Of a DNA stretch of 64,000 bases, positions 1,875-64,000 are shown piece after piece. Under the pieces are notes generated by a model that was given only the letters and a program-made list of their open reading frames with translations, was not told the origin of the DNA and made no database searches. A program made the position numbers and the translations under genes. Within the stretch, counting starts at the first letter, position 1; each line of letters starts with the position of its first letter. The DNA is from a bacterium. GTDB taxonomy: Bacteria; Oederibacteriota; JAAXVQ01; JAUVAV01. The stretch spans positions 86,948 through 150,947 of the forward strand of contig JAIORK010000036.1 of assembly GCA_021108215.1 (NCBI GenBank). Reading direction: 5' to 3'.

Positions 1875-1903
1875 ATTATAAGGCGTACCGCCCCTTGCGT
1901 CAA
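1875..1903 (-). promoter_or_regulatory. Sigma-70-type promoter of ftsEX operon
   Basis: On the minus strand, TTGACG (1903-1898) and TATAAT (1880-1875) are separated by exactly 17 nt. The match is near consensus, and transcription should begin about 20 nt before the GTG start of ftsE. Confidence 0.8.
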
Positions 1904-2277: not shown

Positions 2278-2288
2278 AATAAAAACAT

Positions 2289-19432: not shown

Positions 19433-19621
19433 AAAAACTGAGCATCCGAACAGCAGACCACAGCTGATTGCAGTTCCGCTGTGCTCTGCTGTTTTTCATA
19501 TTATGAAAAAAATCAAAAAAACTGAGCATCCGAACAGCAGACCACAGCTGATTGCTTTTGCTGTTCCGCTGATCGGCTTTTCTGCTGTTCCCTGATTTTT
19601 TTCATATTATGAAAAAAATCA
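19433..19621. repeat. Tandem hairpin repeat between DAHP synthase gene and rnpB
   Basis: A segment of about 38 bp (beginning AAAAACTGAGCATCCG) occurs at 19433-19470 and again at about 19516-19553. In each copy CAGCAGACCACAGC pairs with a downstream complement ending CTGCTG. A near-palindrome around TTTCATATTATGAAA also occurs twice (about 19497-19515 and 19591-19621). The second copy abuts the 3' end of rnpB and may end its transcript. Confidence 0.75.
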
Positions 19622-20034
19622 GAGCAGTCCATAAGCCGAGTTCTGTTTCCCTGTTGCCAGGGATGACGACCATTTATCTGGGACCCTGCTTACGCAGAGC
19701 CTCAAGCGACCAACCCGAGGGGACCGTGGGCTGCGGTTCCGGCAAATAAATACCGGCCCCTCCTATTTGGTCTTGCTCCGAATGGGGTTTGCCCTGCCAC
19801 TTCAGTCACCTGAAGCGCGGTGAGCTCTTACCTCGCCATTTCACCCTTACCCTGCGACCCCTTCGACAAGCTCAGGGATCAACTCAGGGCGGTATATTTT
19901 CTGTGGCACTTTCCTTCACGTCGCCGCGACTGGGTGTTACCCAGCATTCTGCCCGGGGAGCTCGGACTTTCCTCCCCTGTAGATACGTTACATTGCAACG
20001 TATCTACAGGAGCGGCCGCCTGGACTGCTCCGGC
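19619..20034 (-). ncRNA. rnpB: RNase P RNA (bacterial type A), with palindromic repeats in two helices
   Basis: Read on the minus strand, the universally conserved parts appear in order: GAGGAAAGTCCGAGCTCC (P4 5' side and CR-I), a P12 region, GGGTAAGGGTGAAA, GGTAAGAGCTCACCGCGC, AACCCCATTCGGAGCAAGACC, AAATAGGAGGG, and the 3' side ACAGAACTCGGCTTATGG. GCAGTCC near the 5' end pairs with GGACTGC near the 3' end. The ends are placed by this pairing and are approximate. P3 appears to be extended by a 29-bp palindrome (19979-20007), and the P12 region carries the CCCTTCGACAAGCTCAGGG palindrome (about 19857-19876). RNase P matures tRNA 5' ends. The length of about 415 nt is slightly above usual because of these insertions. 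Confidence 0.92.
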
Positions 20035-47300: not shown

Positions 47301-50300
47301 GCTGTCTTATCTTTCTTTTCACTCGCTTGACTACCGATAACCACCTCGACATCTTCGGTTATGCCAATTGCTGCGGGTTTGGCAACATCTCTTGCATTCA
47401 CGATCTGAATTTCACCGGTTTCGCGCTCTGCAAAAAGTACAATTTTCGGAATTTCCAGTGACGGTCCATCAAGATCATCTTTAACTTGTGCGACATCCTG
47501 TGCTTCTTTCGTTTCGGTATCAACAATGGTTTTAATACCACTCTGCCGAGGCGTCAAAGCTTTGAATGTATTGACCGCCAGCTCGCCTAAATCATCAGAA
47601 GCTTCAACAACTTCTTGGACCCCTAATGCTTTTGGGCTTGTTAAGCCAGTGACACTCGCCCGCATAAAACGGCTGTTATTAGCATGATCCATAGTAAAGC
47701 GCATAATCATTTTTTCCGTATCAAAATGCTTTAATAATTTCAGAAATTTTTCAAAAAACTCTGTTTCATTGGCCGTCAGCGCCGAATCTCCAAACTTTGA
47801 TACAAAATAATGAGATTTCTCGGCTGCATCCAATTCAGTTTCCAATCGAACAAACTCTTCAGCACTCAAAACATCCTTCAGCCCTCGCATTTCATGTAAT
47901 TGACCTGCCTTACGCTGGGTTTCCATGCGCAGCATGGCGTCAATATCCACTGAAAAAGGAACCTCTGCATCTTTGAAGATCGTAGAATAAATTTGGATTT
48001 TTATATAATTCTGGTATAAAAACATACTAAATCGATCACAGAACATTTCCAGTGCCACTGTTGCATTGATTGTCCCCTGGGTTTTTGTGCTTGGGTCCTT
48101 GTCCTTCACTTCACGTAAAGCTTTAAAAAGATTCTTATTAAATGCCACACTGGTGATGAGATCGTTATCGTTCATAACTAATTCAAGATACTTATCAAAT
48201 GTAATGGGCTCCAAATCACGTTTGGTTTCCTCGGAGGATCCCTCGGGAATTAAATCCGGCAAGTGCAGGGCCAGCGCATGGGTAAATTCATGCAGCATAC
48301 CCATACTTACCACTTCCTGCAGAGTTTCCTGATCATCCGGAGTTTGTTTGTCTTTCCACTGCTGAGCAGCATATTTAATAATCTTCCCAAAAGCCTCTCC
48401 CTGATCTCCAGCGCGCGACAGCAAATCGTCGAGTTCGTTCCCGTAAGCCCTATACAGCATCATAGGATTAAAATTATTTAGGACAGCCTTAATATAACGC
48501 TTAGGAAGTTCCTTATATAGTGGTTTCCCTCTTTCATCTACAAACCGCGGATCCACTAAAAGTGTACGAAAATCAATCTCTGCATGCCCGCCCTTACGTT
48601 TGGGATACTTCAACAACAACTCACTCGAAGTTGGGATTTTTGTAACATACTCTTTATCTCCAGATTTAACCACAACATCTTTAATGGTAAAATCAATTGC
48701 TACTCTATCATCTTCAAACCTGGGAAGTCCATTTTGCACAAGTACGTCCAACATAACGGCGGCATTTTGATCTGGAACAATTGCAAATGCACCATGCGCC
48801 GGACGCGCATCTCCCTTTTCATACCTCACACCATAATCCGCTTCGTTCTGTTGACGAATCTGACCTTCAATTTCATCTGCAACAAGCTTGGAAAATTCTT
48901 CTCTCAAAACACTTTTACTGCTTTTCTGATCACGTATCGCACGCCTACCCATAATAGTTGGATATTTTAAGCCTGTAAAAATCGGAGCCATGGCCATAAA
49001 CTGCACAGTCCCGGCAAAAGCGGCCAGCGCTTGAGCCGGATCATGCGCCACTGGCGACATGGCGGCAATTTCAGGGAAAATTCTAAAAATATTTTTTACG
49101 CCGCCCAGCAACAATTGCAAATTGCTCATCTCACCGACAGCACCCGTGGCCACAGCTGACGTGACATCCGCCATAATCACCTGGGAGATGACCGGCAACG
49201 CAAAAACACCGATAGCCATAACCGCCAGAATAATATTGCGCTTGGTGAAAACCCTGGTCAGAAAATCTCCGTCACTGTTGGTGGCAGTCCACCAGCCGGC
49301 AATGATAATCAAACTCATGGCCATCAGGGTCAAGGCGGGCGAAACCGCAGCGCCGATACCAAGTAATGGCAGAATGGTTATGGACAAAATTGCTGCGCTT
49401 AACATTGCCAAAGAAACCACCCGCACCTGATTGGAACCCAGCAGGGTGGGCTCACCCGCATAGCGTTTCACCGCTTCTTTATCGAGTATTTCCATACCCC
49501 GGCGTTTAAAAAGCATTCCCATAAAATTCGTGCCGTCCGGTGTCCCAAACTTAACCAGTTTATTGCGAATACGTTCCATGCTTAGTCCCGGCAGGCGCAC
49601 CAGAGCACTCTCGCGCATACGGACCGTTGTCAAATTCACAAAATCAACTGCCCGCGTAAACTGATTCCGGAAATTTCCCATTGTCAAAAAATTCCTGACC
49701 GCCATCGCCAGCGGTATTACCGGCTGACCGGCAATAATTCTTTCAAACTCAGTCAATTGCTCCGGATAGCGAAGCAGTTCAAAATAGTGTGTTCCTGCTT
49801 CCGCCTTGGACATATCCGGCTGAATGGTCACATACGTATATCCGGCACGACTAATCTGCTCTTGAATCGCCACAGTATGATACCCCCCTGTGATTAGAAT
49901 AACTTTTTGCTCGCCGCGATCGTGAATCCTTTGCAGTGCATTTTTATATAAAGCATGATCGCGTTGATCGGCAAATTGGTAAAAACGCAGCGCCTGATGC
50001 AGCGAGGCCTCAAGCCGCACCGCTTCTTCGGAGAGATTAAAATACACACCACCCAAATCACGCTTGAGCGCCGCCGTAATTTTTTTAAGCGAAACAGTCT
50101 CCGCGAGCAAACGATATGCTTCCAAGTCCTCGCGCGACGCAGAGACATTAATCATCCGCTCCACCAGCTCCATATACACTTGATACTGATACAGCCGGCG
50201 TTCCACTGCCGTCCGAAAAACCATTCCCCGCAGTGCATTCTCTAAATACTGTTGTTGCTCAATTTTTTCATGATAATTGAGCTCACGGCGCTTACCAATC

Positions 50301-51112
50301 CGCCGAAGCGTTTGGGGTAAGCGGGCAATGTCCGTCTTGTTTGCCTCGCGGACCAACGCCCGCAAATAAGCATCGGAATCCGCATCGCTTCTCAAGTAGT
50401 GCTTCCTGCGTTTTTCAAAAAAAAGCAACGCCGGATTGTAAACTTTTTCCTGAATGAATTCCAGCTGATCTAAAATTTCAATCACCCGACCGCGATTTTC
50501 TTCCGTGGTAAAACGCTGAATTAAAGCCAGACTGCTCTGATACAGCCGCGCATCCTCTGCCCCGTACAACTCAAGATCCGGCCTGTCATTGATCACCAAA
50601 TAGTCCGCACCGGTCAATTTTCCCTGCTTCATAAAATAATCCGAGACCGCACGCTTGGCAGCAGAGTCAGGGATAACCGCCAATTCAAGCGAAGGGATAA
50701 TCCCACTGCCGCCTTCTACAGCAATAAGATTGATATCATCATGGCGGGTGGTCAGTGTATCCAAAATACCGGTTATATTCTTCTGGATTTCGTAATGACA
50801 ATGGAGGTCCTGGATAAGAATAAAGGTCTGCTTACCGGGTTGATAATCTGCTGCCACAACTTTTCCCAAATTCGAAGGAACCGAATACTTCAAAGCCAGA
50901 CTGCGGCTGCCGGGTCCGCCCAGTTCAATACCCTGGACAGAAGCGTAAAGATAATTTTCTACATCAAAAGCCCAGCTCAACGTGGGAAAGAGAAAGCTAA
51001 TGGATATCAACAAGGCTATGGTCCGCTTCACCATCATTTGTGATGGCTTGTGCCATAGTGATAATAACCAGGAATCTAGTTTTCCTTCAGTAAATGAACC
51101 TTTTATCTTCAT
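44303..51112 (-). CDS. Giant membrane-associated multidomain protein (2269 aa) with ChaN/EreA-like and HExxH domains
   Basis: A complete ORF with its own promoter and terminator. A signal or anchor helix (about 28-48) is followed by a domain (about 90-435) resembling the ChaN/EreA/TraB group: FILIQDLHCHYE (97-108), IAVEGGSG (130-137) and ILITGGYHTVAI (405-416) sit where that group keeps its metal/active-site His and Glu. Hydrophobic helices lie at about 563-610 and 627-648. A metalloprotease-like HEFTHALALH is at 941-950. A Gln/Asn/Gly-rich low-complexity belt spans about 1350-1460. A further helix lies near 1915, the KYSLGQ motif shared with the next giant protein is at 2030-2035, and a coiled coil follows (about 2095-2150). 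No whole-protein family is recognised. The ATG at 51112 has GGGGG nine bases upstream. A surface or periplasmic location is likely. Confidence 0.8.
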   Translation of the reverse strand: MKIKGSFTEGKLDSWLLSLWHKPSQMMVKRTIALLISISFLFPTLSWAFDVENYLYASVQGIELGGPGSRSLALKYSVPSNLGKVVAADYQPGKQTFILIQDLHCHYEIQKNITGILDTLTTRHDDINLIAVEGGSGIIPSLELAVIPDSAAKRAVSDYFMKQGKLTGADYLVINDRPDLELYGAEDARLYQSSLALIQRFTTEENRGRVIEILDQLEFIQEKVYNPALLFFEKRRKHYLRSDADSDAYLRALVREANKTDIARLPQTLRRIGKRRELNYHEKIEQQQYLENALRGMVFRTAVERRLYQYQVYMELVERMINVSASREDLEAYRLLAETVSLKKITAALKRDLGGVYFNLSEEAVRLEASLHQALRFYQFADQRDHALYKNALQRIHDRGEQKVILITGGYHTVAIQEQISRAGYTYVTIQPDMSKAEAGTHYFELLRYPEQLTEFERIIAGQPVIPLAMAVRNFLTMGNFRNQFTRAVDFVNLTTVRMRESALVRLPGLSMERIRNKLVKFGTPDGTNFMGMLFKRRGMEILDKEAVKRYAGEPTLLGSNQVRVVSLAMLSAAILSITILPLLGIGAAVSPALTLMAMSLIIIAGWWTATNSDGDFLTRVFTKRNIILAVMAIGVFALPVISQVIMADVTSAVATGAVGEMSNLQLLLGGVKNIFRIFPEIAAMSPVAHDPAQALAAFAGTVQFMAMAPIFTGLKYPTIMGRRAIRDQKSSKSVLREEFSKLVADEIEGQIRQQNEADYGVRYEKGDARPAHGAFAIVPDQNAAVMLDVLVQNGLPRFEDDRVAIDFTIKDVVVKSGDKEYVTKIPTSSELLLKYPKRKGGHAEIDFRTLLVDPRFVDERGKPLYKELPKRYIKAVLNNFNPMMLYRAYGNELDDLLSRAGDQGEAFGKIIKYAAQQWKDKQTPDDQETLQEVVSMGMLHEFTHALALHLPDLIPEGSSEETKRDLEPITFDKYLELVMNDNDLITSVAFNKNLFKALREVKDKDPSTKTQGTINATVALEMFCDRFSMFLYQNYIKIQIYSTIFKDAEVPFSVDIDAMLRMETQRKAGQLHEMRGLKDVLSAEEFVRLETELDAAEKSHYFVSKFGDSALTANETEFFEKFLKLLKHFDTEKMIMRFTMDHANNSRFMRASVTGLTSPKALGVQEVVEASDDLGELAVNTFKALTPRQSGIKTIVDTETKEAQDVAQVKDDLDGPSLEIPKIVLFAERETGEIQIVNARDVAKPAAIGITEDVEVVIGSQASEKKDKTAGDDETALELLEQVDDQVPFDAASLLGTVTVARSSVEDTKENVAKKLIDKNRAEANVGVTGDVNIEVAAGVALAQDNFASNVVAPEANPDLGMYAAAGRAAVPSSFTSPSQMPYFSGADAFAGNNIAGDLSTAFQNQASQPLAAPGRGINQGSIDAMNQNAQFTANAGLNQGSLQAVPGSLGTGIFETSRFGRSATDWQAIPSRDIPGQKGAGRDQAFLANFNQANPELFRALGLPKDTQNQILAEPRIGYLLGKASQLLPMLPGNQPITFGFDSQSLADQMNAILTAMLGTKQGADLAGRIRTDVFPLDKTSGQRFAPSNWQVFNGIAVISDQMNNLRPVTVVLNADGNAAVAVPLLGIKKDKVNLESLQSIPGWEKILAASNKTLGQMRNQGELSDYYLVTAATIRELQQGRQGRLLSNLLSPVTGFQDVSNLTVQLPTLALRVAAQPAFKQGAKRVVMDINLAGLESLLRAGEANALSIAMFGTSEIISSSLGYNINSAFIQALLQADTLEAAPLEMVVEQNALESEYGVNRQSVFNQWFESLQAKFQQLLGKQAAGRMSKAEAEAQADELMGLDTVTLISRNKRLGEHLTRLRGRTWEQEPSLFSSDIYYAFKHGRMQSKPIVDVEAWNPKVEPTKHSRQRGLSKIFSALLLGFAAGVLVFDTFVEIGRTRDAQGKRISVFAIFRHPNFVKALQLMSMVIMGNGKAMDYLSPAVKQQINDLQKLSAVEDDTDVVNLQEREAMIDTLSFEQIPTSLKYSLGQFKSFKKMLVNHPIFKFLMRITGIRNIVPLYPELFVILSESQNMQSVMWYFAPAVTTRKNMAELDNANQVLQENLTRSVETAREEMGRLRTQLQEQQAGAKQDYQAMNRINSQIKDRRFTLLLNRALDNLGRNNTNRNIRRLIRVLLKELARRDVENAEGYQEDILKILSMLEPFQQVPVQIVLESGKKVQASIPASLNDTVLRDQLLFFLDVYDSKGQPMQPLRRKVLRAGASA

Positions 51113-51279: not shown

Positions 51280-54200
51280 TTAGGCAGCACTATCCAATCC
51301 ACGACGATAAAGCGGTTTGGGAAGTTGTAAGGGTTCACCCTTCCACAAGGTCGCCGGGAACATTTTCAATAATTTCCTTAATAAATAGGGTTTTTCAATA
51401 ACAATCCGCGGAACAACCTGATCAATTTTAGTACCATCCCGGGTTGTGACGGTTATTGTTTCTTTTGCGATTCCAGGAGGAATTTCTCCCAAAACAGAAA
51501 GAACACCCTTACTTGCTTCGGTACTATCCTGAACCCCTTCCAGGACACTCATAAGCCCCTGAACAAGAAACATGACTTTAGCCTGGTCCCACTTTTGGCC
51601 TAAGTTTTGGAGCGATTGCTGCATCCATCTGCTTTGGACCAACTGTGTACTTACCTGGCTCGTGATTGATGTCTTGAGTCGATAGTGATAATACTGGGCC
51701 GGGGCAAAGGTCGCAACACCAAGCATTGTTCCTGCTACCGCCAGTTCAACACTAAAACCGCCCATCAAAGCCACACCAAGACCTGCCCAAACACTCAGAA
51801 GCAATCCAAGCATTGCTGTTTTAGCAAATCCCTGCAAACGCGGATTGGAGAGTAACAACATTAACCGCAAACTGGTCGGAACACCGCGCATTCGATTGAA
51901 CCACTGCCCAAGCCGGCCTTCCCGCATATTGAGAAGTATTCCACCGGCAGGTCGCACTGCGGTTTGGGGTGTTGCCGCACCAATCTGCTGAACACGCAAA
52001 ATTTGATCAATCACATTTTGAATCGTACCGGTATCGTCCACCTGGGCGAACGCCATAGCAGACCTTTGTGCCCTCGCCTGGCTTTCCGATATCCAGCGGA
52101 TCACACTATCCAGATCCTCAATCGAGATATTGTTTACTGCCTGGATCAGCACCTGCGCCTGGGCGTCACTTAAAGCCGCCTTGACAGATACATTTTTATT
52201 CATTGCATCCCACAACGCTACGACGCTTTCACGGTTTCCCACCCGGGATAACAACAACGCATCCGGAACGGCTTGCTCTGCATTCTCCCGGAATTGCATC
52301 AGTTTTTGCGCCATCCCGGCCTGTAGCTGCGGCAACAACGCCGAAGAAACCTTGGCGGTTATTTCCTTGACCTGATCGGAATATTGATTAAAAGCAACAT
52401 CATCAAGTAATGTCTGCTGCGGAATCCCCTGCATTCGCGCATCAATCATAAAACTATATGCCCGTAACATGGCAGCTGCTTCCGCCTCTGAAATAATCCC
52501 TTCCCGGACATACTGATTGATGACTTCATCCACCGAAGCAAAATGACGGCCATAGAGGCTGTTGGCCATCAGCATAAGATTATAAAAAAGCTTCTGTGTC
52601 TTTTTGGGCGTGATCGCTGAAATGGACTTCTTAATCTGCTGCTTGGCAAGATAGGTCAAATCAAGTTGATACTTTATATCCGCCATAATTCCCGCCTGTA
52701 TCCGAATAATATCCGCTTGCACCGCTTGCGATCCTGTCATAGCGCGGGCACCAAGTAATTTACTGCGCACCAAATAGTCTGTGTCCTGCGACCAATTTTC
52801 CAATGTTTCAATGGCATAAATTTCGTTCGTCGGATCAGACAAGTATCCCAGTTCCTTACTAAGAATACCGTCAACAACATTTTTCAGGTTTTCAACCGCT
52901 TTGTGGTCAGCATCATTTTTACTGATCCAAAACATATCCATATCTGATTCAGTGACCGGTTCTCCCAGGCGCGACATACTGCCTGCGTAAAACACGGGCG
53001 CGGTGATCACACCGCGGGTCATAAAACGCGACCGCCTGTTTTCAGGCAAACGCCCAATTGCGGCCTGCAAGGCATAAAAAAGCGCATAGTGGTTTAGAAT
53101 CCTGATCATTTCCGACAACTGCCGCGTATTTTTTTCACCGCCTACTGTTTTTGCCAGCGCCTCTAAAATTTCCCGCCGTGGACTTTGGCTAAACTGTGCA
53201 ATCTGCTTTTTGGCTTGCGCAAACGCTTCATCCGAAATATCCAAAGATGCATTAAAAAGCGCTTCTTCAATATTATCGTATGGGGCCGTGGCTTGCGCTG
53301 CCCGGGCGTAGTCAGTTTTTTGTAAAAGTTCATTTAATAATCCGCTTATATTTCTGCCGGGAGTTCCGAAGGAACGCCGGCTGTCACGAGGCGTCTGCAC
53401 CCCGGACATAAGCCCAATACCGATCCCGCTTACCGCCATCGCGGCCGGTAACAGTACCGCCAAAGCGGCCGGTATTGTCAGAAATAAACCGGCTGCCAGC
53501 ATCACACCGGACAGGGTAAACACTCCGCTCAATACCAGCGCACCGGTGCGAACACCACTGCGCTCGACACGTGCGATGGCAACCGGAGCAGTAAAAAAAT
53601 CAAGTGTATGCGCCATAAATTCAGCCAGACCACTCATCACCCGGTATGCCGGAGTTCCGGGTTGCTGTCGGGTAATATCCAGCCCAAGCTGCCGCATCAT
53701 TTTATCCACCAGAACATGCGAATAGGATTCATGCGCCACAATCGGCCAGGGCGCTTCGGCCACAACCTGACCGGTTACCGGATCAACCATTTTTTGCGTA
53801 ACCGGATCATACGCACCCACTGGTTTTCCCCAGTTTTTCAGCATGCCGGACCAGCCGTGTTTGGCATACAGTGCCCGGCCCACAGCCGCCAGTTTGGCAG
53901 AAGGATAAAGCAAGCCGATTGCCAATCCAGGACCCATACCGACCACCGGGAGTAATAGCATCGTCCACAGCAAACTCACAACCAGGGTGTTTTTCAAACT
54001 AAGCCATTGATACCGTAAAGGTTTCGCCTGGGGCTTTCCCTGCGCATCAAAATTAATTAATAATTTATTGGAATCGTTGGAATCCACACTATATCCAAAT
54101 TCCCTTTCCATGGCCGAATTAAGTTTGCCCGGCAGGAGCCGCAATATCTGCGGCGAGAGCATGCCGAAACTCTGCCGGAGATCCTGCAGGACCTTACTCC

Positions 54201-57200
54201 GTGCCTGCCCCAGATGCGTCCGTATTTTCCTAAGCAGATCGGATTGATCGAGGCTATCCGGAAATTCATGTGCATTGTCACTGAAACGCATCATCATCTG
54301 ATAGGGCACCAACCGGCCGTTTCTTTTTATGTGCACCAGAATAGAACTGTTATCGCCAATGGTGCTTACACGCCCTTCGATGAGAATACCGCCCTCACGC
54401 AAAGCCTTGCCCATGCTTTGTACAGCTGCTTGTTTGGCCTGCTCGCTTTTGTACCAACGCAACACGTTTGTACAGCGGATGATGTCAACATTTTCCTGCT
54501 GAATCTCAAATCCGCCCAATTGGAAAGCGACATTATTATGCGCTTCCTCCAGTGCAACGATTTGGCGGTAATTCTCCAGACTGTTTTCAATGCCAATCAC
54601 CTGTGCCTCACGATTGATCTCACCGATCCGTTTGGCGGTTTCCAAAGTGGTGTCCGCATCGCGGCCAGGTCCGACCTCTATAAAAACAGGTGCCTTACCG
54701 GTCACCGGATTGTTTTGGCTCAAGTCAATCCCAATTTCCGGCAGCAAGGTATCAAACATATAATCATCCGTATCTTTCAAGCGCCCCGGCTGTGATTCGT
54801 CAGAGGTCAGGATGCCGGAAACCACACCCATGCCTTCCACACGGGCAATAAGCGCATCCGTACTGTAACCGGTCACTGCTGTGACAATCTCATCCGCCCG
54901 GTCATGGGAAAACCCGACGCTTTCCAATGCTTCATGCAGCACAATGGCGGCAACCACCTCATTATCTTTGCGGTTATTTTCAAACTGTTGGAATGCCTTC
55001 CCGGTGATATAGACTTTCCCATTGAGATGGAATGCACCGGTTTCATAGAGATCCTGATCCGTTTCGATCCTTTTTCCGTCAACACGCCTCGCGATATGGA
55101 TGGAAATTTGCGTGGCATTAATTTTTTTGATTTGTGCGGCCTCTGTCTCATCTCGGGCCGCATTGACCGCCATTTCCAGATAATCCGCCAGTTGGTTCCG
55201 GATGGGAGATGCCCGGCCGCGATACCGCGAGAGGGTCACTGCCGCCAGGCCTTGGGCGGAAAATACGGCATTCACAATTTCTTCAATACGGTCACGTGAA
55301 AATGCCGCAATCGTCGCAAGCGCCTTGGCCGGTTGGAGCGTGATGTTATACATGCTCTCGGTCGCGTTTTTCAATAAAGTCCCCAGTAATAATTCACCCT
55401 TTGCTCCCTGGAGTGTACCGCTTAAATTCGCTTTTTCAAGATCATTTAAAAACGCAACCAGGGTATCAACCTGCGCTTCTTCCCGTGGATACAGTTCACG
55501 ATCCTTGGCAGTCGCAATCAGATTGTCCAATGCCGACTGCAAATAGGCGGCCCCGCGTACAGGACCGAAAATTTTCATAACCCCTCGATAAATCACGGAA
55601 TAAGGAACCCATTCTTTGCGCACACTCCAGCCCTTTTTAAAATTTTCATAAAGGCGGTAGAGATGACGCTCCGGAGGAAAATCTTCCGGAAAATCCAGTG
55701 TGGTCATATCAACCATGGCAGCGGTCCATCTGAATTTCTTTCCGACCTGAACCCGTTTAACCAAGATATTTTTAAAAGTCGGATCGAAAATGGTACCACC
55801 GATCCGGGCCAATTTCATATATTCACCCACAACAGCGATCACCGCATCTTCAAAATTTTGAAGAAATTCTTCATCCGGATTTTCAAATTCCGGCTCCCAT
55901 CCTGAAATGCGCTCCCCGGGGAAATACTCCTCAAACATCCAATCCTTGCCTACCGGTCCCATCAGCAATGCCTTGTACCTGCGTTTTTTTCGTAAAATCT
56001 CAAAAGCCTTAACTGCCTGACGGACAACTTCAGTGTTTCCCGGCTTGTTCGTGGTTTTCAAAACCAGGGAACGAAATCCACGGCCGCTCTTGATGTTAAT
56101 CAGGTAAGCGGCTTTTTCTGCGCCTTTGTCAATATAGCTAACCGAAATATAATCTTCCGGTCTGAGTTTTTCAGGAAATCCCATACCGAACAATTCTTCC
56201 AGCGCCGCGTCCAAGATATGGTCCTGCTGGATAACTTCACTGATCCGCAGTTGTTCGCTTTTTTGAATATCCGTAAAAATCACCCGGACCAGTTTGCCAT
56301 CAACTGTGATCTGTTTTTCCGCCGTCTTTTTGGCCAGATACCGGCGCATCCCGAAAGAATCGCCAAAGCTTTCTTCCCAGGCATCTGAAACGATATCTTG
56401 CAGGCTGCTGCGCATTTCCTCCTGGCCGTCAAAAACCTGTGCGACAACCACATTTAAATACCGCTTCACACCGTTGATGGGGCCGTTGCGAAAAATCTGA
56501 ATATGATTTTTTTCAGGCTGCGGGATCTGCGGAAATGAAGCCTGCAGAATTGACAAAATATATCCAGCATAAATGTCTTGGCATCCCATCTTGAGCGGCG
56601 CTTCTGTATTGCCGTTTTTGATGACCTCTATTTTTTCATTACGCTTAAAATCACGACTCAGCGGTATTTTAAACCGAAAAGTATCGCCGTCCGAATCTGT
56701 GAATTCCGCAGTCCGGAAATTAATTTTTCCCGGATAACCCTCGTCCGACCCCAGCGATCCTACCATCCCCATGGCCAGCATACCGCCGCCGGCTTCCTGA
56801 TTAAAATAACTGTAAAGTCCGCCTGCGATCATCAGGATGATCATCGGGTTGCCGCGTACAAAATCAACGGCGCGCCGAGCCAGTTTGCGCAGTGTCCCAA
56901 ACCGACTCACTTCCTGAGGCTGAACCTGCAACTGCCTGCTCTGGATAATTTTAATGCCAATAAAAGGTAATACTGTTATTAAAAAACCGCTCGCAATGAC
57001 GCCCACCGCAATTGGCGCAAAAACGCCGGTTACAATGATGCCGTAAATTCCAAATGTCATGATGCCCAATCCCAGCAGGGAAATTGCGGCCCCGAGCCGA
57101 AAGAAACCCGCTTCATTGCGGGGCAGCACTGCCAGCCGGCCAGTGGTTTCACGGACCATGCGGACCTGGGCGCTTAATTCCCGATAAAAACTGGCTGCTT

Positions 57201-60200
57201 TTTCTTTGGCCAGATCCCGCATACTCTGCCGGGCTGTTACCAGTAATTTTCGGCTGTAAGGCGTAATTTTCCCCTGCTTGGCCATACTCGCGACCTGAAG
57301 ATCCTGGAACATGCGCCCGATTTTACCAGGCTGACGGACCTCCGCTGTCGGCATGCTGGTATACACAGCCGTCAGGGAAACCTGGGCATTATTGCCATAG
57401 CCGGAATTATTCATCTCCGCCTCAATGGCAGTTACAAAAGCATCAATCGCTTCATCTTCCGGTTTTCCGGATCGCAAAACATCCGTCCCGATCGTATCAA
57501 TTGCCAGATGAGGCAAAGCGATCAGCTGGTCGCCGGCACTGTAGCTGATGAAATCATTCAAAAATTTAAATTTATAATATTTTGGTGTCAATTGGGCACG
57601 TTCCGCCGTATCCAGTAAGGCGGCTTCCTTCGCACTCACCAATTTACCGCCGACATCAATAAACATGGAGACAAATTTTTCCCGCATCGCCTCATCCACG
57701 GCAGCGTCGAATCCTGCCGTATCCGATTTGATCTCTTTTATAATAGCGTCCAAAGAACGTGTATCACCGGCCGCCTTCATATTCTGTGCCGTCTCTTCAG
57801 CGTAAGACTCTGAAAAACCAATACGCGCAGTATCTATGAAATTACCGTAATACTGCCCCTCCAGCTCAATCAGGTGGGTTTCTTTGGGCGTAATCACAAC
57901 CACTTGTATCTTATCCGGTCCGGTCGAGGGCGGCGCCCGGCCGATATAAACTTCAGATGAAAAATTCTTTTTCCCCCGGAGAAATTTCAAGCGCTGATCC
58001 ACCGTTTCCCGCAATCCTTCAATCGTAAAATGCCGGGGATAGAGCGTCTCGTATTTTTGCTTATGCCCGTTGCCATCCGGGCGAAATTCAGTTTTAAGTA
58101 AAAGGTTGTCCTCAAACAAGAGTTTTTGCATCTGCATCTGCTCAGTATGCGTCTCACCCAGCAGCGTGGCCCCTTCTTCTTTTATCCTCGGCTCAATCGG
58201 CTTATCCATCTGATCCACCACGACTTGATTCTTCTTCATCCCCTTTTCAACATCCACTATCCGGCCGGGACCATACACGGCATGTTTATCCCCGCGCTTG
58301 CCGTCATGTAAAAAATCTCCGGCCAGTTCATACACCTCATCATCCCATTGATTGATATCCGTGCGATTGAGCGTCCCCTTACGCTGTTTCCGTACCATGT
58401 CATTGGGAACACGACTCGGTTTGGTGGCACCGGTGGTTGCTGTAGTCGTCAACACTGCTCCATTTTCCAGATAATCAACCCCTTGCGCACGGGCAGTTTC
58501 CCGGAGTTCCCGACTGACCAAGTCAGCCATTTTCATGTTTTTCAACTGAACATCTATTTTCAAATCTTCCATGGCCTTTTGCAGCAGCCCTTGCATCAAA
58601 CGGCCGCCGGCCTGCTCCATTGATTCACCCTCCAAATAGGCCGTACGCTGGTCCTGATCAAGATACCCTTTGAGTTCGGTTTGCAATTGGGTTATTAATT
58701 TTCGTTTTCGGGCCGCAGATAATTCATTGAACCCGACTTTAAGCATAACGCGAATACCCATAACTTCATCACGCACCACCCGCACCGTATTCTTGGCACC
58801 AAATTTTTCATAGCGGAGATTTATTTCATCGGCAATAGCTTTCAGGGATTGCATTTGGGTTTCATCCATACCCGGCAATTCAAACGCCATCAGCTGATTA
58901 TGCATCCGCGATTGAATGGCTTTGCGGAACACTTCCAAAACCGCCTCGGTATCTGCCACGGACAAATTATCCGGCAGCACATAAATCCCTTCATCACCAC
59001 CGTGGCGAATCGTAAAAATTTTGCCGGTTGCCAACTTAGGCAGTAAACGGAACGCTTCTAAAAAACGCACCTGAAAAAGTGCTTGCCGAATTTTCCTCAG
59101 AATTTCAAAGCGTCCTTTCCGAAGATATTGCTTCACACCGGGTGCCCGTGCGGTCTCAGTCATCACTGCCAGCACATCATCCAGCACACAATTTGTCAAA
59201 GCCTTACCATAGATGAGGTTGTAGGAGGAGAGGCCGTCAATATCTGAAAACGCCTCCCAAAAATCGCCGCCTTTTTCCAGAATTCTTTTACGCAGCGCCT
59301 CACCCTGTGCACGGGTCAACATTTTATTTGAGGAGAAAAACCAGCCCGTAAACCGGTTGCGCAGACGCTGCAACACACTGGATTTAAGGATGACTTCCTG
59401 ATGTGCCATAGAGACCGTCTCAGCCAGAGTAAAATCAGTGGTATTAAGAATCACAGCATCTGTGACTGCCTGCAAAGGATCACGTCTCCGCGTCCGGGCA
59501 AGTTTATCTAATTGCCGCAAACGCTTCATTGCATCAACAACTTCATCTTTGGAAATCCGGCGCCGGGCTTTGCGCTCAATCCGGCTGCGTAAATCATTGT
59601 TGACCACATAAAATTTCGCCCGGGCCTGGCGGTCAAAAATCTTTGCGCCCATGGTCTGGCCGACGGCAATAATATTTTGTTCTCTGGCCAGGCGGCGCAA
59701 TTGTATTTCCAGCATATCCTGAATTGCAGGCACTTTACCCAAGGCCGTCACAATCGGTTTGAGTTTGATGCCTGCCTCGACTTCACGCACCTTGCCTGCG
59801 GCATCCAGTTGCGGAATAACCTGATCCGTAATTTCCTGTCTGCGTTTCCTCTCCGGATTAATGAAAACCCGCATCCGACGCTCGGTCGCTGCGCGATCAA
59901 ATTGCATACTCACCGCAGCTTGTTCTAAATCTCTCACAACTTGGTTTTCAACATAATTAACCAACTGCTCTTTTTTCGCTTTCAGGGTATCCAGCAGATC
60001 AATCAGATAAACAATATCCTTACGAAACGCTTCCTTTTGACGAATTTCCTTGCGCACCTGATCAATCTCCTCATCAATTTCAGCAAGATTCTCAAAAACC
60101 GAAGCATCCAAACGTCCGCTTTCAATTGCCGCTTTCACCACCCAGGCGTAGGCACGGTAATAGACACCCGCCTCGACCAACGTGTATCCATAATATCTGG

Positions 60201-63200
60201 AAAGCACCTGGGCAATCTCCTGTTTTCCGGAAGCATCGGGTCCGTCCACGGTGATCACAAATTTAATTTTAAAATAATTGTAAACACCCCAAACCAGCAC
60301 CAGCACTGAGATGGCGATCCACGCGCCGGAAATGCCCGCTATCGTACCGACAAAAAACATGGTTAGCAGTGCGCTGATTATGCCAACCACACCCACTGTA
60401 ATGAATAGCGCCGAGAATAAGCGGGTGGGCCAGGCAATCTCCTGGAAAAAACTCCGAATTGATGTCATCTGTCCCAACGAATACTTCGAAAAGGTGCTGA
60501 GTTCGCTGACGGTTTGATGCGGTTCTCCCAGTACGCTTTCCAGCACTTCATGAAGAACCGCTTCACTGACAGTATGACCTTCCAATACATTAATGTATCC
60601 AATATTGCCGTGGGCGGTTTTTTCGATGGTTAAAAAAGCGCCAATCTCCTTGGCCCGTGATGGCACCCCCTTCTGCGGAAACACTTTCCTGACCTTTAAA
60701 TCAACAATTTTCTGATCCCGGCCTAAAACCGCCACACTGATGGAATTTCCCTTTTCCATTTGCGTGAGTACATTGCGTAACCGGGCCAGGGTGGCTTCAT
60801 ACATTGTTCCGCGCAAAGGTTTTTCCATACGCTCAATTTCATAGCGCAGCAGCTCGCGCGTATACTCCGAATCTCTGGTTTCAACGTTATGTCCGAAAAA
60901 ATCAAAAAAAGCATTAAGTTGTTTCTGGCTCATCAGTGAGAAACCCTGTTTAACAACAGCATCAGCCAAGTCCCCGGTCTGTGAGGCAATAATATTATTC
61001 TGTCGAGCCGTCAGGCGCATTTTTTTAAAAATCGTCGTACGTCCCTCCAGAAATTTTGTCATCATCTGTGTAAGGGTCTGCTGCGTTTCTTCCCCATAGA
61101 AACCGCGTTCCTGCAAGTTCAGTGCTATTGCCTGCTGCCGAAGATTCAATATCTTTCTGGCGGCCTTTAAAACCAGGAGTGTGTTTTTCTTTTGTTGCTC
61201 CTTGATGGCTGCCACCCCGCCTGGTTGCGCATCTATCTGAGTAATCACATTCGCCGTATTTTCAATAATGGCCGCCAAATGAGCATCATCATAATGCCGT
61301 GGGTTGCTCAATTTGGCATCAATACTTTCCGGATAAAGCGCTTGTTCGATAATAAACGCCAAAGCGTGTGATTGCTCAATCCCATTGGCTTGCAGTACAG
61401 CTTCGACAATTTCATGTAAAACCGTCGAAGCTCTCAGCTCGCCATAAAGTTGCCTTTCAAAAACAACACTAATCTTACCGCTAAAATTTTCATTCACCGC
61501 CAAGGCGCCAACGATTTTGTCGGTTGTTTGAATGGAAAGATTTTCCGCTGAAATGGCATGTAAATCTTTTTCAATGCTTGCCAACACCGTTTTGTCCTCG
61601 ATAAAAGAATCAAGAACACTTACCACCTCGCGGGAACGCATTTTTATATGACGGGCATAAACCTCCGTCTTTTCTTCCTGCAACGCCTCGGACCGGCTCT
61701 GCACCTGGGTAAACTCTTCCACCAACACCGGTTGCGCGCTGAGTCCGGCCACTTCAAAAGCCATGGCCCCAACCATCTGACTCTCAGACTGCAGCCGAAA
61801 TTCTTTTCCCGCCTCCAGCGAAAGCATTGTATTCCCACCGTGCCTCTTGCTGCTCACCCCGGCATTGACAACCAGAACCGGAGCGGTCTCGCCCATCCCT
61901 TTACGCATATTTGCGACATACAACTCCACATCCTCGGGCCGCGTGCTGGCAACATTTACCGAGAGGTCAACATTGACAGGTAAATTTTTATAATGGGAAG
62001 CCTGCCGCGCATCTGCACAAATATTCAAATGCAGGACATACTCTTTCCCATCAACCTGCAGGGAAACAATATTGTCGCGGAGCGCCAACCCATCAGCAAA
62101 AGCCTGCGCAACCACCGGGTGATCCGCCAAAAGCTTTTGAATCTGCGGCCTACCGGCCACATCGGCTGAACGGGTCCCTTGCCGGACGGCACGCAGTGTA
62201 TCCAGATCACGCGCAATCGTCGCCGGAACATTGGGACGAATCACCAACACACCGTCAACCGGCATCCCTTCCGCCGACAAGCGCACACCCATAATAATAT
62301 TTACATTTTTATCGTTCGCCTGCTTCTGTAAAGCATCGATGGCTTGTTCCATCTTGGCCGGATCAGCGGTCGCCATATACCGTTCAGGAAAAACCACCAA
62401 CTCAGCACCATTGTGCTGCAAAGAATCAATATTGTCGCGTGTACGATTCTGCCAGTTAAAAAAATCGGTATCCACCGGATGCGGCAATTGATCCTGGACC
62501 GCCACCACACGCAAGCCGCGTCCGATTTGTTCTCCCACGGTCTGAACCGCGAGGGCTTCTTCTGAAGCCACTGCACTGCGCAGAACCGCATTTCCCATCG
62601 TCATAACTAGTTTGGCTCTTGCCTGGCGGCTGGCTTGAATGCCAATATCCTTACTGGCGCGCAGTGTCGGTGTGGTCAAATCAATAACACCGACCATTTT
62701 GCTCTGATCAAAAACAGTCATGCCTTCCACTGAATGTCCGGAGAAAAATGCCACCTTGTCAATGCCCAAAGCCGGCAAGGCCTGTTTGATCCCTCGCAGG
62801 GTGCTGATAAACTGTTTTTCCGCACCCCTAAACCCGGGACGGTTGAAATGCGAGGAGCCGTTGTCAACACAAAGCACAGTTTGCCCGTTGATCACTGCCA
62901 CACGCATGTACCCGGCGTAACCGGCGGTCCTAATATTCTCCGCATTCGGGTTGGAATAGGTGGCATGCGGCACACCGCCGCGCGAGACTACCTGGCTGCC
63001 ATCCACGGCATAGGTGATAAAATCACTGATCGTGATTGCGGACTCGCTTTCTTCCACCTGATCCATAATACGTTCAAGCGCCTGCCGAAAACCGGGATTG
63101 CGCGAGGTAAATGTATTCAGTTGCATACCCTGAACCAGCAACATTTTTTGTTCTACCAGGTTGGCCTGCAGGACCCGGACATCTTCATCTTTGCTGTAGC

Positions 63201-64000
63201 GTTTTGCCAAAATTTCTATGACCCGCTCAGCCTCAGTCAACAGTTCCATCAACCGGGCCTGATTATAGCGACCGCTGCGGTATTGGGTCAATGCGGTGTT
63301 AAAATTTTCTTTAACCGCTGCAACCAAATCCTGTTTGGCAGCGGCACCTGAATAAGCTGTGTCAGATTCGGGTGCTGTCAATTTGCGGTCTTCCGCCTTG
63401 CTAAACTCGGCACTGACCGCTTCTATCCCCATGTCGTATCCCGCCAGCAAACGGGCCACAATTCCGGCAAATGCCTCACCGGTTGTATCACCCTTCAAAC
63501 CGGCAATATGGCCGGTCTCATGTGCCAACAGCCGCATGAGTTTGGTCACATTATTTTTTGCAGCGTATTTTTGAATTTGATTGGCATTGAGGCAAATCTG
63601 ATCGCCGCGCACCAATGCAACACCGTGATCCGTATCAGACATTTTATCCGAAACCAGCACACGATAGGTCAATGCCGGCCCTTCAGCAATACTCGCGTAC
63701 AACTGTACCAATGCACTATTGGCCTGCATAAAATCAAAATTAAGCTGATTTCTCAGTTTGGCATGTTCCTGACTTTCATTATAAGAAAGACTCTTTTTAC
63801 GCTTGAGAAAAACATCGCGTTTCTCTTTTTTATCTCGTTCCGCAACGAGTTTATTGCGTGTTTGATCAAGCTTGTCCAACAGATCATCTTTGCTCAACGT
63901 CACGGTATTATCTTCACCCAGGGTAAAACCAATACGCGTCAGTTGAGTATTAATTGCATCTTGGACCTGCTGATTGCCATAGGCATCCAAAGGTACCGCC
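51280..64000 (-). CDS. Giant multidomain protein, at least 4240 aa, built of many enzyme-like domains (N-terminus outside window)
   Basis: The frame is open to the window edge, so the start is missing; residues are counted from a TTG at 63990. Visible modules in order: HETGH metalloprotease-like (157-161); nitrilase-like (about 493-750; Glu in VVFPE, Cys in LNICAD); LHEIVEAV (858-865); LHEVLESV (1146-1153) then KYSLGQ (1169-1174); membrane helices (about 1190-1240); cytidylate kinase-like (about 1243-1530; GPDASGKQ); GGDEF-like (about 1570-1790; GGDEG); helices about 2300-2350; protein/APH kinase-like (about 2615-2800; Lys in LVLKTT, FDPTFKNILV, VDMTTLDF); LHEALESV (3018-3025); methyltransferase-like (about 3098-3260; EVGPGRD); HESYSH (3420-3425); nucleotidyltransferase-like (about 3665-3740; GSMSRLGEPVTESDMDMF); final helices about 4050-4110. 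Several catalytic motifs deviate from consensus. Function unknown; one uninterrupted frame this long argues for selection on the protein. Confidence 0.8.
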   Translation of the reverse strand, partial: AVPLDAYGNQQVQDAINTQLTRIGFTLGEDNTVTLSKDDLLDKLDQTRNKLVAERDKKEKRDVFLKRKKSLSYNESQEHAKLRNQLNFDFMQANSALVQLYASIAEGPALTYRVLVSDKMSDTDHGVALVRGDQICLNANQIQKYAAKNNVTKLMRLLAHETGHIAGLKGDTTGEAFAGIVARLLAGYDMGIEAVSAEFSKAEDRKLTAPESDTAYSGAAAKQDLVAAVKENFNTALTQYRSGRYNQARLMELLTEAERVIEILAKRYSKDEDVRVLQANLVEQKMLLVQGMQLNTFTSRNPGFRQALERIMDQVEESESAITISDFITYAVDGSQVVSRGGVPHATYSNPNAENIRTAGYAGYMRVAVINGQTVLCVDNGSSHFNRPGFRGAEKQFISTLRGIKQALPALGIDKVAFFSGHSVEGMTVFDQSKMVGVIDLTTPTLRASKDIGIQASRQARAKLVMTMGNAVLRSAVASEEALAVQTVGEQIGRGLRVVAVQDQLPHPVDTDFFNWQNRTRDNIDSLQHNGAELVVFPERYMATADPAKMEQAIDALQKQANDKNVNIIMGVRLSAEGMPVDGVLVIRPNVPATIARDLDTLRAVRQGTRSADVAGRPQIQKLLADHPVVAQAFADGLALRDNIVSLQVDGKEYVLHLNICADARQASHYKNLPVNVDLSVNVASTRPEDVELYVANMRKGMGETAPVLVVNAGVSSKRHGGNTMLSLEAGKEFRLQSESQMVGAMAFEVAGLSAQPVLVEEFTQVQSRSEALQEEKTEVYARHIKMRSREVVSVLDSFIEDKTVLASIEKDLHAISAENLSIQTTDKIVGALAVNENFSGKISVVFERQLYGELRASTVLHEIVEAVLQANGIEQSHALAFIIEQALYPESIDAKLSNPRHYDDAHLAAIIENTANVITQIDAQPGGVAAIKEQQKKNTLLVLKAARKILNLRQQAIALNLQERGFYGEETQQTLTQMMTKFLEGRTTIFKKMRLTARQNNIIASQTGDLADAVVKQGFSLMSQKQLNAFFDFFGHNVETRDSEYTRELLRYEIERMEKPLRGTMYEATLARLRNVLTQMEKGNSISVAVLGRDQKIVDLKVRKVFPQKGVPSRAKEIGAFLTIEKTAHGNIGYINVLEGHTVSEAVLHEVLESVLGEPHQTVSELSTFSKYSLGQMTSIRSFFQEIAWPTRLFSALFITVGVVGIISALLTMFFVGTIAGISGAWIAISVLVLVWGVYNYFKIKFVITVDGPDASGKQEIAQVLSRYYGYTLVEAGVYYRAYAWVVKAAIESGRLDASVFENLAEIDEEIDQVRKEIRQKEAFRKDIVYLIDLLDTLKAKKEQLVNYVENQVVRDLEQAAVSMQFDRAATERRMRVFINPERKRRQEITDQVIPQLDAAGKVREVEAGIKLKPIVTALGKVPAIQDMLEIQLRRLAREQNIIAVGQTMGAKIFDRQARAKFYVVNNDLRSRIERKARRRISKDEVVDAMKRLRQLDKLARTRRRDPLQAVTDAVILNTTDFTLAETVSMAHQEVILKSSVLQRLRNRFTGWFFSSNKMLTRAQGEALRKRILEKGGDFWEAFSDIDGLSSYNLIYGKALTNCVLDDVLAVMTETARAPGVKQYLRKGRFEILRKIRQALFQVRFLEAFRLLPKLATGKIFTIRHGGDEGIYVLPDNLSVADTEAVLEVFRKAIQSRMHNQLMAFELPGMDETQMQSLKAIADEINLRYEKFGAKNTVRVVRDEVMGIRVMLKVGFNELSAARKRKLITQLQTELKGYLDQDQRTAYLEGESMEQAGGRLMQGLLQKAMEDLKIDVQLKNMKMADLVSRELRETARAQGVDYLENGAVLTTTATTGATKPSRVPNDMVRKQRKGTLNRTDINQWDDEVYELAGDFLHDGKRGDKHAVYGPGRIVDVEKGMKKNQVVVDQMDKPIEPRIKEEGATLLGETHTEQMQMQKLLFEDNLLLKTEFRPDGNGHKQKYETLYPRHFTIEGLRETVDQRLKFLRGKKNFSSEVYIGRAPPSTGPDKIQVVVITPKETHLIELEGQYYGNFIDTARIGFSESYAEETAQNMKAAGDTRSLDAIIKEIKSDTAGFDAAVDEAMREKFVSMFIDVGGKLVSAKEAALLDTAERAQLTPKYYKFKFLNDFISYSAGDQLIALPHLAIDTIGTDVLRSGKPEDEAIDAFVTAIEAEMNNSGYGNNAQVSLTAVYTSMPTAEVRQPGKIGRMFQDLQVASMAKQGKITPYSRKLLVTARQSMRDLAKEKAASFYRELSAQVRMVRETTGRLAVLPRNEAGFFRLGAAISLLGLGIMTFGIYGIIVTGVFAPIAVGVIASGFLITVLPFIGIKIIQSRQLQVQPQEVSRFGTLRKLARRAVDFVRGNPMIILMIAGGLYSYFNQEAGGGMLAMGMVGSLGSDEGYPGKINFRTAEFTDSDGDTFRFKIPLSRDFKRNEKIEVIKNGNTEAPLKMGCQDIYAGYILSILQASFPQIPQPEKNHIQIFRNGPINGVKRYLNVVVAQVFDGQEEMRSSLQDIVSDAWEESFGDSFGMRRYLAKKTAEKQITVDGKLVRVIFTDIQKSEQLRISEVIQQDHILDAALEELFGMGFPEKLRPEDYISVSYIDKGAEKAAYLINIKSGRGFRSLVLKTTNKPGNTEVVRQAVKAFEILRKKRRYKALLMGPVGKDWMFEEYFPGERISGWEPEFENPDEEFLQNFEDAVIAVVGEYMKLARIGGTIFDPTFKNILVKRVQVGKKFRWTAAMVDMTTLDFPEDFPPERHLYRLYENFKKGWSVRKEWVPYSVIYRGVMKIFGPVRGAAYLQSALDNLIATAKDRELYPREEAQVDTLVAFLNDLEKANLSGTLQGAKGELLLGTLLKNATESMYNITLQPAKALATIAAFSRDRIEEIVNAVFSAQGLAAVTLSRYRGRASPIRNQLADYLEMAVNAARDETEAAQIKKINATQISIHIARRVDGKRIETDQDLYETGAFHLNGKVYITGKAFQQFENNRKDNEVVAAIVLHEALESVGFSHDRADEIVTAVTGYSTDALIARVEGMGVVSGILTSDESQPGRLKDTDDYMFDTLLPEIGIDLSQNNPVTGKAPVFIEVGPGRDADTTLETAKRIGEINREAQVIGIENSLENYRQIVALEEAHNNVAFQLGGFEIQQENVDIIRCTNVLRWYKSEQAKQAAVQSMGKALREGGILIEGRVSTIGDNSSILVHIKRNGRLVPYQMMMRFSDNAHEFPDSLDQSDLLRKIRTHLGQARSKVLQDLRQSFGMLSPQILRLLPGKLNSAMEREFGYSVDSNDSNKLLINFDAQGKPQAKPLRYQWLSLKNTLVVSLLWTMLLLPVVGMGPGLAIGLLYPSAKLAAVGRALYAKHGWSGMLKNWGKPVGAYDPVTQKMVDPVTGQVVAEAPWPIVAHESYSHVLVDKMMRQLGLDITRQQPGTPAYRVMSGLAEFMAHTLDFFTAPVAIARVERSGVRTGALVLSGVFTLSGVMLAAGLFLTIPAALAVLLPAAMAVSGIGIGLMSGVQTPRDSRRSFGTPGRNISGLLNELLQKTDYARAAQATAPYDNIEEALFNASLDISDEAFAQAKKQIAQFSQSPRREILEALAKTVGGEKNTRQLSEMIRILNHYALFYALQAAIGRLPENRRSRFMTRGVITAPVFYAGSMSRLGEPVTESDMDMFWISKNDADHKAVENLKNVVDGILSKELGYLSDPTNEIYAIETLENWSQDTDYLVRSKLLGARAMTGSQAVQADIIRIQAGIMADIKYQLDLTYLAKQQIKKSISAITPKKTQKLFYNLMLMANSLYGRHFASVDEVINQYVREGIISEAEAAAMLRAYSFMIDARMQGIPQQTLLDDVAFNQYSDQVKEITAKVSSALLPQLQAGMAQKLMQFRENAEQAVPDALLLSRVGNRESVVALWDAMNKNVSVKAALSDAQAQVLIQAVNNISIEDLDSVIRWISESQARAQRSAMAFAQVDDTGTIQNVIDQILRVQQIGAATPQTAVRPAGGILLNMREGRLGQWFNRMRGVPTSLRLMLLLSNPRLQGFAKTAMLGLLLSVWAGLGVALMGGFSVELAVAGTMLGVATFAPAQYYHYRLKTSITSQVSTQLVQSRWMQQSLQNLGQKWDQAKVMFLVQGLMSVLEGVQDSTEASKGVLSVLGEIPPGIAKETITVTTRDGTKIDQVVPRIVIEKPYLLRKLLKMFPATLWKGEPLQLPKPLYRRGLDSAA

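What the first reader, a model, noticed from the sequence alone, without database searches (positions are those of the whole stretch)
51280..64000. Giant protein assembled from a series of cytosolic-enzyme-like domains
One unbroken frame of more than 12.7 kb encodes, in order, metalloprotease-, nitrilase-, cytidylate kinase-, GGDEF-, kinase-, methyltransferase- and nucleotidyltransferase-like modules, separated by membrane helices. No known megaenzyme (PKS, NRPS) or adhesin has this order. Giant genes are known from Omnitrophota, but their roles are open. It may be a scaffold, toxin or predation factor that recruited housekeeping domains.
Basis: partly seen in the sequence, partly recalled or inferred. 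Interest (0 to 1): 0.87.

Follow-up and report, generated by a model that had tools for sequence, protein, structure and literature searches.

The report
TIKI-headed giant mosaic protein family
An uncultured bacterium (candidate phylum FCPU426) carries a real 5,713-residue gene, one of ten related giants that share a conserved enzyme-like front domain and often a similar tail but fill the middle with reshuffled, altered copies of ordinary cell enzymes; the same front domain begins giant proteins in other phyla, which gives these mysterious proteins a common, testable handle.

Summary
The frame is real, lies on the minus strand, and runs 4.4 kb past the window: 5,713 codons. Cytidylate kinase is confirmed by sequence, nitrilase by predicted fold, GGDEF by profile comparison. 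Methyltransferase is weak. Metalloprotease, kinase and nucleotidyltransferase rest on motifs. Several catalytic residues are lost here or in relatives (kinase DGRD to VGQT; nitrilase Glu and Cys gone in one relative).

Bigger finding: the gene is one of ten paralogues (2,270 to 9,482 codons, 5.9% of the genome). All begin with a hydrophobic segment and a ~430-residue head that has a TIKI/erythromycin-esterase-like fold and an invariant D-x-H...E...H pattern with the same 28-residue His-Glu spacing as characterised members. Eight of ten gene ends, counting one unrelated neighbour, finish in Ala; 0 of 31 ordinary genes do. Middles are shuffled banks of housekeeping folds (SecY, PPDK, NagB, others), strikingly cysteine-poor. 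The head also starts ORFs of up to 24,620 codons in other phyla.

The named relative is candidate phylum FCPU426, not Omnitrophota. Best reading: an exported, membrane-stapled mosaic with a TIKI-type hydrolase head. Topology evidence conflicts; function is inferred. New variant of the known giant-ORF phenomenon.

The parts
51280..64000 (-). C-terminal 74% of the giant gene (codons ~1475-5713 of 5713 plus stop); the 5' 4.4 kb (signal-like segment, head domain, first hydrophobic hairpin) lies outside the window at C36:150948-155368
   Evidence: uniform codon-position GC
63382..63999 (-). metalloprotease-like module, HETGH at 63499-63531
   Evidence: motif; relatives HESGH (G3b) and RASGH (G4, motif lost); coordinates
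61732..62574 (-). nitrilase-fold module (Glu at 62374-62397, Cys at 62005-62025; both lost in relative G3a)
   Evidence: Foldseek prob 1.00 to nitrilases; hhalign; residue loss
61117..61722 (-). conserved HExxE module (HEIVEAVL), shared with G2, G3a, G3b
60265..60438 (-). hydrophobic hairpin before the cytidylate kinase module
59392..60270 (-). cytidylate-kinase module with a large insertion; P-loop GPDASGKQ, DGRD replaced by VGQT
   Evidence: Pfam 2.8e-16; PDB 7.7e-13; residues
58687..59364 (-). GGDEF-type module (SDIDGLSSYN...HGGDEG) with an insertion
   Evidence: hhalign 88%, E 2.8e-6; control; alignment
56938..57111 (-). hydrophobic hairpin
55522..56259 (-). kinase-like stretch (VLK, FDPTFKNILV, MVDMTTL)
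   Evidence: residue pattern only; no hit
54787..55419 (-). third HExxE module (HEALESVG), shared with G3a
54052..54684 (-). methyltransferase-like module (FIEVGPGRD at 54652-54684)
   Evidence: Pfam Methyltransf_12 0.003, CheR 0.005 (below cut-offs)
53398..53997 (-). two hydrophobic hairpins (53878-53997, 53398-53556) flanking a HESYSH motif (53713-53739)
52522..53244 (-). nucleotidyltransferase-like stretch (GSMSRLGEPVTESDMDM at 52933-52986)
   Evidence: motif, 0.03 expected by chance; no structural test
51283..52032 (-). conserved C-terminal domain with hairpin (51697-51831) and tail RRGLDSAA
44303..51112 (-). downstream paralogue P0002 (2,269 aa) with the same head domain (~49727-51067) and tail RAGASA

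Best explanation
The gene encodes one member of a lineage family of giant mosaic proteins. SHOWN by sequence: an N-terminal hydrophobic signal-like segment; a ~430-residue head with a TIKI/Ere-like predicted fold whose D-x-H...E...H residues are invariant across 40 sequences; a middle of shuffled modules derived from housekeeping folds and interrupted by hydrophobic hairpins; a conserved C-terminal domain ending in a basic stretch plus -SAA; and strong cysteine depletion. INFERRED: the signal segment sends the chain through Sec; the hairpins staple it to a membrane; the modules act mainly as folded binding or spacer units on the outside of the cell membrane, since several have lost catalytic residues here or in relatives while the fold is kept; the head is the constant catalytic part (an esterase- or protease-like hydrolase); the Ala-rich tail is a recognition end, most plausibly for a C-terminal processing protease or PDZ-type receptor. 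The organism keeps ten such chains, each loaded with a different set of recruited modules, as an envelope-surface apparatus.
For: Ten paralogues share the head in one genome. Head model pLDDT 83.6, pTM 0.81; Foldseek top hits EreC and BcR135. Invariant D55, H57, E85, H373: the H57-E85 spacing of 28 equals His-3902/Glu-3930 in VvRRSP and His-85/Glu-113 in Bcr135, and D-x-H corresponds to Glu-3900-x-His-3902 of the 2His/2Glu site (PMC6254334). Charges around the N-terminal hydrophobic segment are N-in/C-out. Cys 0.165% in the ten giants against 1.13% in window proteins without and 0.58% with an N-terminal hydrophobic segment (p 2e-26 and 3e-9). Eight of ten own-genome giants with a stop (counting the unrelated neighbour YD7831) end in Ala against 0 of 31 ordinary ORFs (p 5e-7). 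Free-standing canonical Cmk and SecY exist elsewhere in the genome, so the giant copies are extra. Catalytic residues altered: Cmk GKS to GKQ/GKR and DGRD to VGQT, nitrilase Glu and Cys gone in G3a, HExxH gone in G4.
Against: The 73 hairpins have K/R-rich flanks (267 KR, 113 DE) and acidic tips (4 KR, 27 DE), which by the positive-inside rule would place the modules in the cytoplasm. Sister giants carry modules with intact-looking active sites for ATP- or sugar-phosphate-dependent chemistry: NagB, HD-GYP, calcineurin phosphoesterase, PPDK, GT4, odd for an outside location. Foldseek scores for the head are modest (E 8e-3, TM-score 0.22). The head was not found in the PDB by sequence. No expression data.
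Confidence: 0.5

Rival explanations
1. Membrane-tethered cytoplasmic mega-enzyme: only the head is outside; hairpins dip into the membrane from the cytoplasmic side and display the modules inside, where kinases, PPDK, NagB and nucleotide enzymes find substrates.
For: Strong positive-inside charge pattern at 73 hairpins; intact-looking active-site motifs for cytosolic chemistry in sister giants; sugar and nucleotide metabolism families in sister giants.
Against: Sevenfold Cys depletion relative to ordinary window proteins; even-numbered hairpins after an N-in/C-out signal segment keep modules on the head's side; eroded catalytic residues in this protein and its relatives.
Confidence: 0.25
2. 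Contact-dependent attack protein: exported giant whose acidic-tipped hairpins insert into another cell's membrane from outside and whose modules act in or on the target cell, in the manner of modular toxins.
For: Acidic tips with basic flanks would also fit insertion from outside; a TIKI-family domain is an effector of MARTX toxins (PMC6254334); giant multi-domain TM proteins of Omnitrophota have been proposed as predation factors (PMC12419801; PMC10066038).
Against: The TIKI-like domain is the constant head, not a variable effector; no toxin family passed; no immunity-gene pattern was looked for; cross-phylum giants mostly lack the hairpins.
Confidence: 0.13
3. Neutral accretion: once a head and tail allow stable export, duplicated gene fragments are fused in frame and retained without selected function, a domain graveyard.
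For: Shuffled order and different content between relatives; several modules with lost catalytic residues.
Against: 37-60% identity across genera with motif-level conservation in head, HExxE, GGDEF and tail, uniform codon structure over 17 kb, sustained Cys depletion.
Confidence: 0.1
4. Assembly artefact joining separate genes.
For: Metagenome-type assembly.
Against: No stop in 5,753 codons, uniform codon-position GC, homologous multi-module ORFs in independent assemblies, ten such ORFs in one genome.
Confidence: 0.02

Closest known systems
Giant ORFs of Omnitrophota (Velamenicoccia/Omnitrophia), Seymour et al. 2023, PMC10066038
   Same: Very large ORFs with many membrane helices, no clear function; proposed envelope/host-interaction role.
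   Different: Here the named relative is FCPU426, and the family has a conserved TIKI-like head, a conserved C-terminal end and housekeeping-fold modules; that paper reports giants as poorly conserved with few annotated domains. This gene (17.1 kb) is below its 20-kb definition, though six paralogues exceed it.
Gigantic Omnitrophota proteins with Skillet-clade Lipocone, biosynthetic, kinase, peptidase and methylase domains (PMC12419801)
   Same: Mix of enzyme-like domains and TM segments in one giant chain.
   Different: Lipocone domain not tested here; the head/tail architecture and Cys depletion are not described in the passages read.
TIKI / erythromycin esterase (Ere) superfamily (EreC, Bcr135, ChaN, RRSP)
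   Same: Fold resemblance of the head; D/E-x-H...E (28 residues)...H pattern.
   Different: No significant sequence match; mostly helical large insertion; Asp replaces the first Glu; used as the constant N-terminal head of giant proteins.
MARTX and polymorphic toxins
   Same: Modular giant exported chains; a TIKI-family module occurs among MARTX effectors.
   Different: No toxin family passed in the Pfam searches of this family; head constant, modules housekeeping-like.

Membership tests
TIKI/Ere superfamily (head domain) | parallel-sheet core fold of TIKI/Ere proteins | tested here: met
   AlphaFold model pLDDT 83.6; ranks 1, 2, 3 and 5 in PDB Foldseek are Ere/BcR135 structures, best prob 0.94 but E 8e-3 and TM 0.22: supportive, not strong
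TIKI/Ere superfamily (head domain) | 2His/2Glu active-site pattern | tested here: met
   D55-x-H57, E85 (spacing 28, as in VvRRSP and Bcr135) and H373 invariant in 40 sequences (reference residues); first acid is Asp, not Glu; not checked by superposition
TIKI/Ere superfamily (head domain) | significant sequence similarity to a solved member | tested here: not met
   no PDB chain at E<=10 with the family profile
TIKI/Ere superfamily (head domain) | hydrolase activity | not testable with these tools
   needs purified protein
Giant ORFs sensu Seymour et al. 2023 | ORF longer than 20 kb | tested here: not met
   17.1 kb here; six paralogues 25-28 kb meet it
Giant ORFs sensu Seymour et al. 2023 | multiple predicted transmembrane helices | tested here: met
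Giant ORFs sensu Seymour et al. 2023 | Omnitrophota host | tested here: not met
   nearest named record is FCPU426
Cytidylate kinase (module) | family match above curated cut-off | tested here: met
   60.3 bits against 26
Cytidylate kinase (module) | P-loop GK[ST] and CMP-site GRD | tested here: not met
   GKQ and VGQT here, GKR and VGQT in G3a
Nitrilase superfamily (module) | nitrilase fold | tested here: met
Nitrilase superfamily (module) | conserved Glu-Lys-Cys triad | tested here: inconclusive
   Glu and Cys present here, both lost in relative G3a; Lys not assigned
GGDEF domain (module) | homology to GGDEF family | tested here: met
   88%, 2.8e-6
GGDEF domain (module) | GG[DE]EF signature | tested here: inconclusive
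   HGGDEG/HGGDES/PSGDEG in four relatives
PKS/NRPS megaenzymes | ketosynthase, adenylation, condensation or carrier domains | tested here: not met
   none; one search lists only the 25 commonest of 37 families

The most novel reading that the evidence does not exclude
TIKI-like head plus hydrophobic Ala/Leu/Val-type tail define a cross-phylum class of exported carrier proteins: the constant ends handle export, anchoring and self-processing, and the interchangeable middle is a bank of captured housekeeping modules that the cell (or its prey or partner) meets outside the cytoplasm. The giant ORFs of Omnitrophota and relatives would then be one homologous system.
Probability: 0.25. Interest if true: 0.88.

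Novelty: new variant of a known kind. Interest (0 to 1): 0.7.

Why it matters
Giant bacterial proteins have been reported as poorly conserved and hard to interpret (PMC10066038). A shared head with an intact hydrolase-like active site, present at the start of ORFs from about 400 to over 24,000 codons in at least three phyla, turns 'what are giant genes for?' into an assay on one 430-residue domain. The wholesale capture of housekeeping folds (even SecY) into cysteine-poor giant chains is also an unusual route of protein evolution.

Tried and rejected
Pfam and NCBIfam on the whole protein named only Cmk above a cut-off; P0002 gave no Pfam family. PDB sequence searches for the head, kinase-like and nucleotidyltransferase-like stretches gave nothing significant. 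Head against viral structures gave nothing below E 1e-3. Idea that the giant copies replace missing essential genes: rejected, canonical Cmk and SecY exist. Idea that the Cmk module is a recent copy of the organism's own Cmk: not supported, other phyla's Cmks match as well or better. Adjacent 7,831-, 1,921- and 260-codon ORFs: no Pfam family in the stretches scanned. Hairpin charge pattern across phyla: not testable, only 4 hairpins in 14 giants.

Full report
WHAT IS THERE. The frame reported at 51280-64000 is real and lies on the minus strand. The window is G000:C36:86948-150947. Outside it the same ORF continues to C36:155488, 5,753 codons in all, 5,713 residues from an ATG with an upstream AAGGGAGTG. 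Codon-position GC is uniform over the whole length. Relatives in other assemblies hold long collinear stretches (G4: 58.5% identity over residues 54-944; G3a: 41% over 1,812 residues). I therefore reject the artefact explanation.

WHO IT BELONGS TO. The only named relative is JAUXBQ010000023.1, 'candidate division FCPU426 bacterium CSMAG_2803'. Its length (16,898) equals contig C132 of G002, a genome of the same family as G000. So the host is most likely FCPU426, not Omnitrophota.

THE MODULES. Cytidylate kinase is secure. The nitrilase module is secure as a fold: an AlphaFold model built with two full sequences, poor on average (pLDDT 64), still returns nitrilase-superfamily structures with probability 1.00 throughout the listed top 50. 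hhalign against CN-hydrolases of the same order and one other genome of the phylum gives E 1.4e-4 over the first ~75 residues against 0.23 for a control pairing. GGDEF is supported at 88%, E 2.8e-6 against the organism's own GGDEF proteins, control 0.39. The methyltransferase is weak. Kinase, metalloprotease and nucleotidyltransferase rest on motifs. Catalytic residues are often not kept: Cmk has GKQ for GK[S/T] and VGQT for DGRD, the latter shared with relative G3a, whose nitrilase has lost Glu and Cys; G4 has lost the HE of the protease motif. The order itself is not conserved: in G4 and G3b the HExxH module precedes the segment it follows here.

THE FAMILY. The first 480 residues match ten ORFs in the genome, 2,270 to 9,482 codons, together 69,903 codons, 5.9% of the genome. 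Pfam scans of eight sister giants and one neighbour find SecY, PPDK, NTP transferase, phosphoglucomutase, SecA, TolC-type OEP, glucosamine-6-phosphate isomerase, rhomboid and HD, and glycosyltransferases and phosphorylase. Several of these keep their active-site motifs by eye. Free-standing Cmk and SecY exist elsewhere in the genome, so these are extra copies.

THE HEAD. The alignment of 40 heads has invariant D55, H57, E61, E85, E138, R345, G370, G371 and H373. The model has erythromycin esterase EreC and BcR135 structures as its best matches, with modest scores. In the TIKI superfamily the active site is 2His/2Glu; in VvRRSP Glu-3900, His-3902, Glu-3930 and His-4030; in Bcr135 His-85 and Glu-113 (PMC6254334). 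The His-Glu spacing of 28 is exactly that of H57-E85, and D55-x-H57 and H373 supply the other two positions. This match of fold ranking and residue spacing is the best evidence for function. The spacing comparison was made after the fold result, and the residue mapping was not checked by superposition. In other phyla the His and the GGFH/GGYH remain in the copies inspected while Cys58 varies.

REACH. The head profile matched none of the other families held for the FCPU426 phylum except one weak 54-residue hit, but it matched 9 of 44 genomes of a second phylum (ORFs up to 24,620 codons, up to 49 matches per genome, some copies split into two matches) and 169 of 384 genomes of a third, large phylum at E<=1e-30, including ~440-residue stand-alone proteins. 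In fourteen such giants the head is N-terminal behind a hydrophobic segment, Cys is low (0.34% overall), and the thirteen with a stop all end in A, L, I, V or M, against 5 of 31 ordinary window ORFs.

THE ENDS AND THE LOCATION. Eleven of thirteen FCPU426-group giants with a stop end in Ala, mostly basic residues plus xAA or xSA, including the neighbouring 7,831-codon ORF that lacks the head. They fall into at least two groups of C-terminal domain, so the tail may be a signal in its own right. Exceptions are C4a and C12. Cysteine is 0.165% in the ten giants against 1.13% and 0.58% in window proteins without and with an N-terminal hydrophobic segment. This and the signal-like segment argue for a location outside the cytoplasm. 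Against it, 73 hydrophobic hairpins carry basic flanks and acidic tips, which by the positive-inside rule would hold the modules inside. TM calls come from a hydropathy script, not a trained topology predictor. I could not resolve this conflict; it decides between the leading explanation and the first rival.

HOW IT MOST LIKELY WORKS. Exported by its N-terminal segment, stapled to the membrane by hairpins, with a TIKI-type hydrolase head as the constant active part, recruited modules as mostly binding or spacer units, and a C-terminal tail read by a processing or PDZ-type partner. Export, activity and tail recognition are inferences.

RELATION TO THE KNOWN. Giant ORFs with TM segments and mixed enzyme-like domains are known from Omnitrophota (PMC10066038; PMC12419801), and a preprint cited in PMC12057145 links giant genes to predation. 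I found no paper on giants in FCPU426 in the held library (and follow-ups), which is not proof of absence. The new elements here are the TIKI-like head as a shared signature, the C-terminal end, the cysteine depletion and the size of the paralogous family.

Noticed in passing
G000:C36:159583-183078 (L003/L004, outside the window): A 7,831-codon ORF without the head domain, 0.08% Cys, whose C-terminus KITGSAA resembles the tails of the head-bearing giants; no Pfam family in the stretches scanned individually.
   Followed up: partly
G000:C36:183404-189169 (L004): Contig-end ORF of at least 1,921 codons with a ~60-residue repeat (NVYGLTGATVTNTNITSNPFNGLN...), 0.16% Cys.
   Followed up: no
G000:C8:21324-47234 and C49:56936-83227: Giants carrying NagB, HD-GYP, PPDK, GT4, phosphorylase and calcineurin-type modules whose active-site motifs look intact by eye, unlike the eroded ones in the window gene.
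   Followed up: partly
G000:C4:26722-27651: A SecY-family membrane protein (E 3.6e-49) embedded inside a 9,337-codon giant ORF, besides the normal SecY on C42.
   Followed up: partly
G000:C12:9046-36855 and C4:2953-30966: These two giants lack the Ala tail; the C12 end (GACFMCWPGNICIL) is unusually Cys-rich and may follow a frameshift.
   Followed up: no
G000:C12:9046-36855: Four HExxH motifs of one type (VVAHE[IVM]xH) where 0.19 are expected by chance, suggesting a repeated metalloprotease-like module.
   Followed up: no
window 19617-20031: Bacterial class A RNase P RNA on the minus strand.
   Followed up: no
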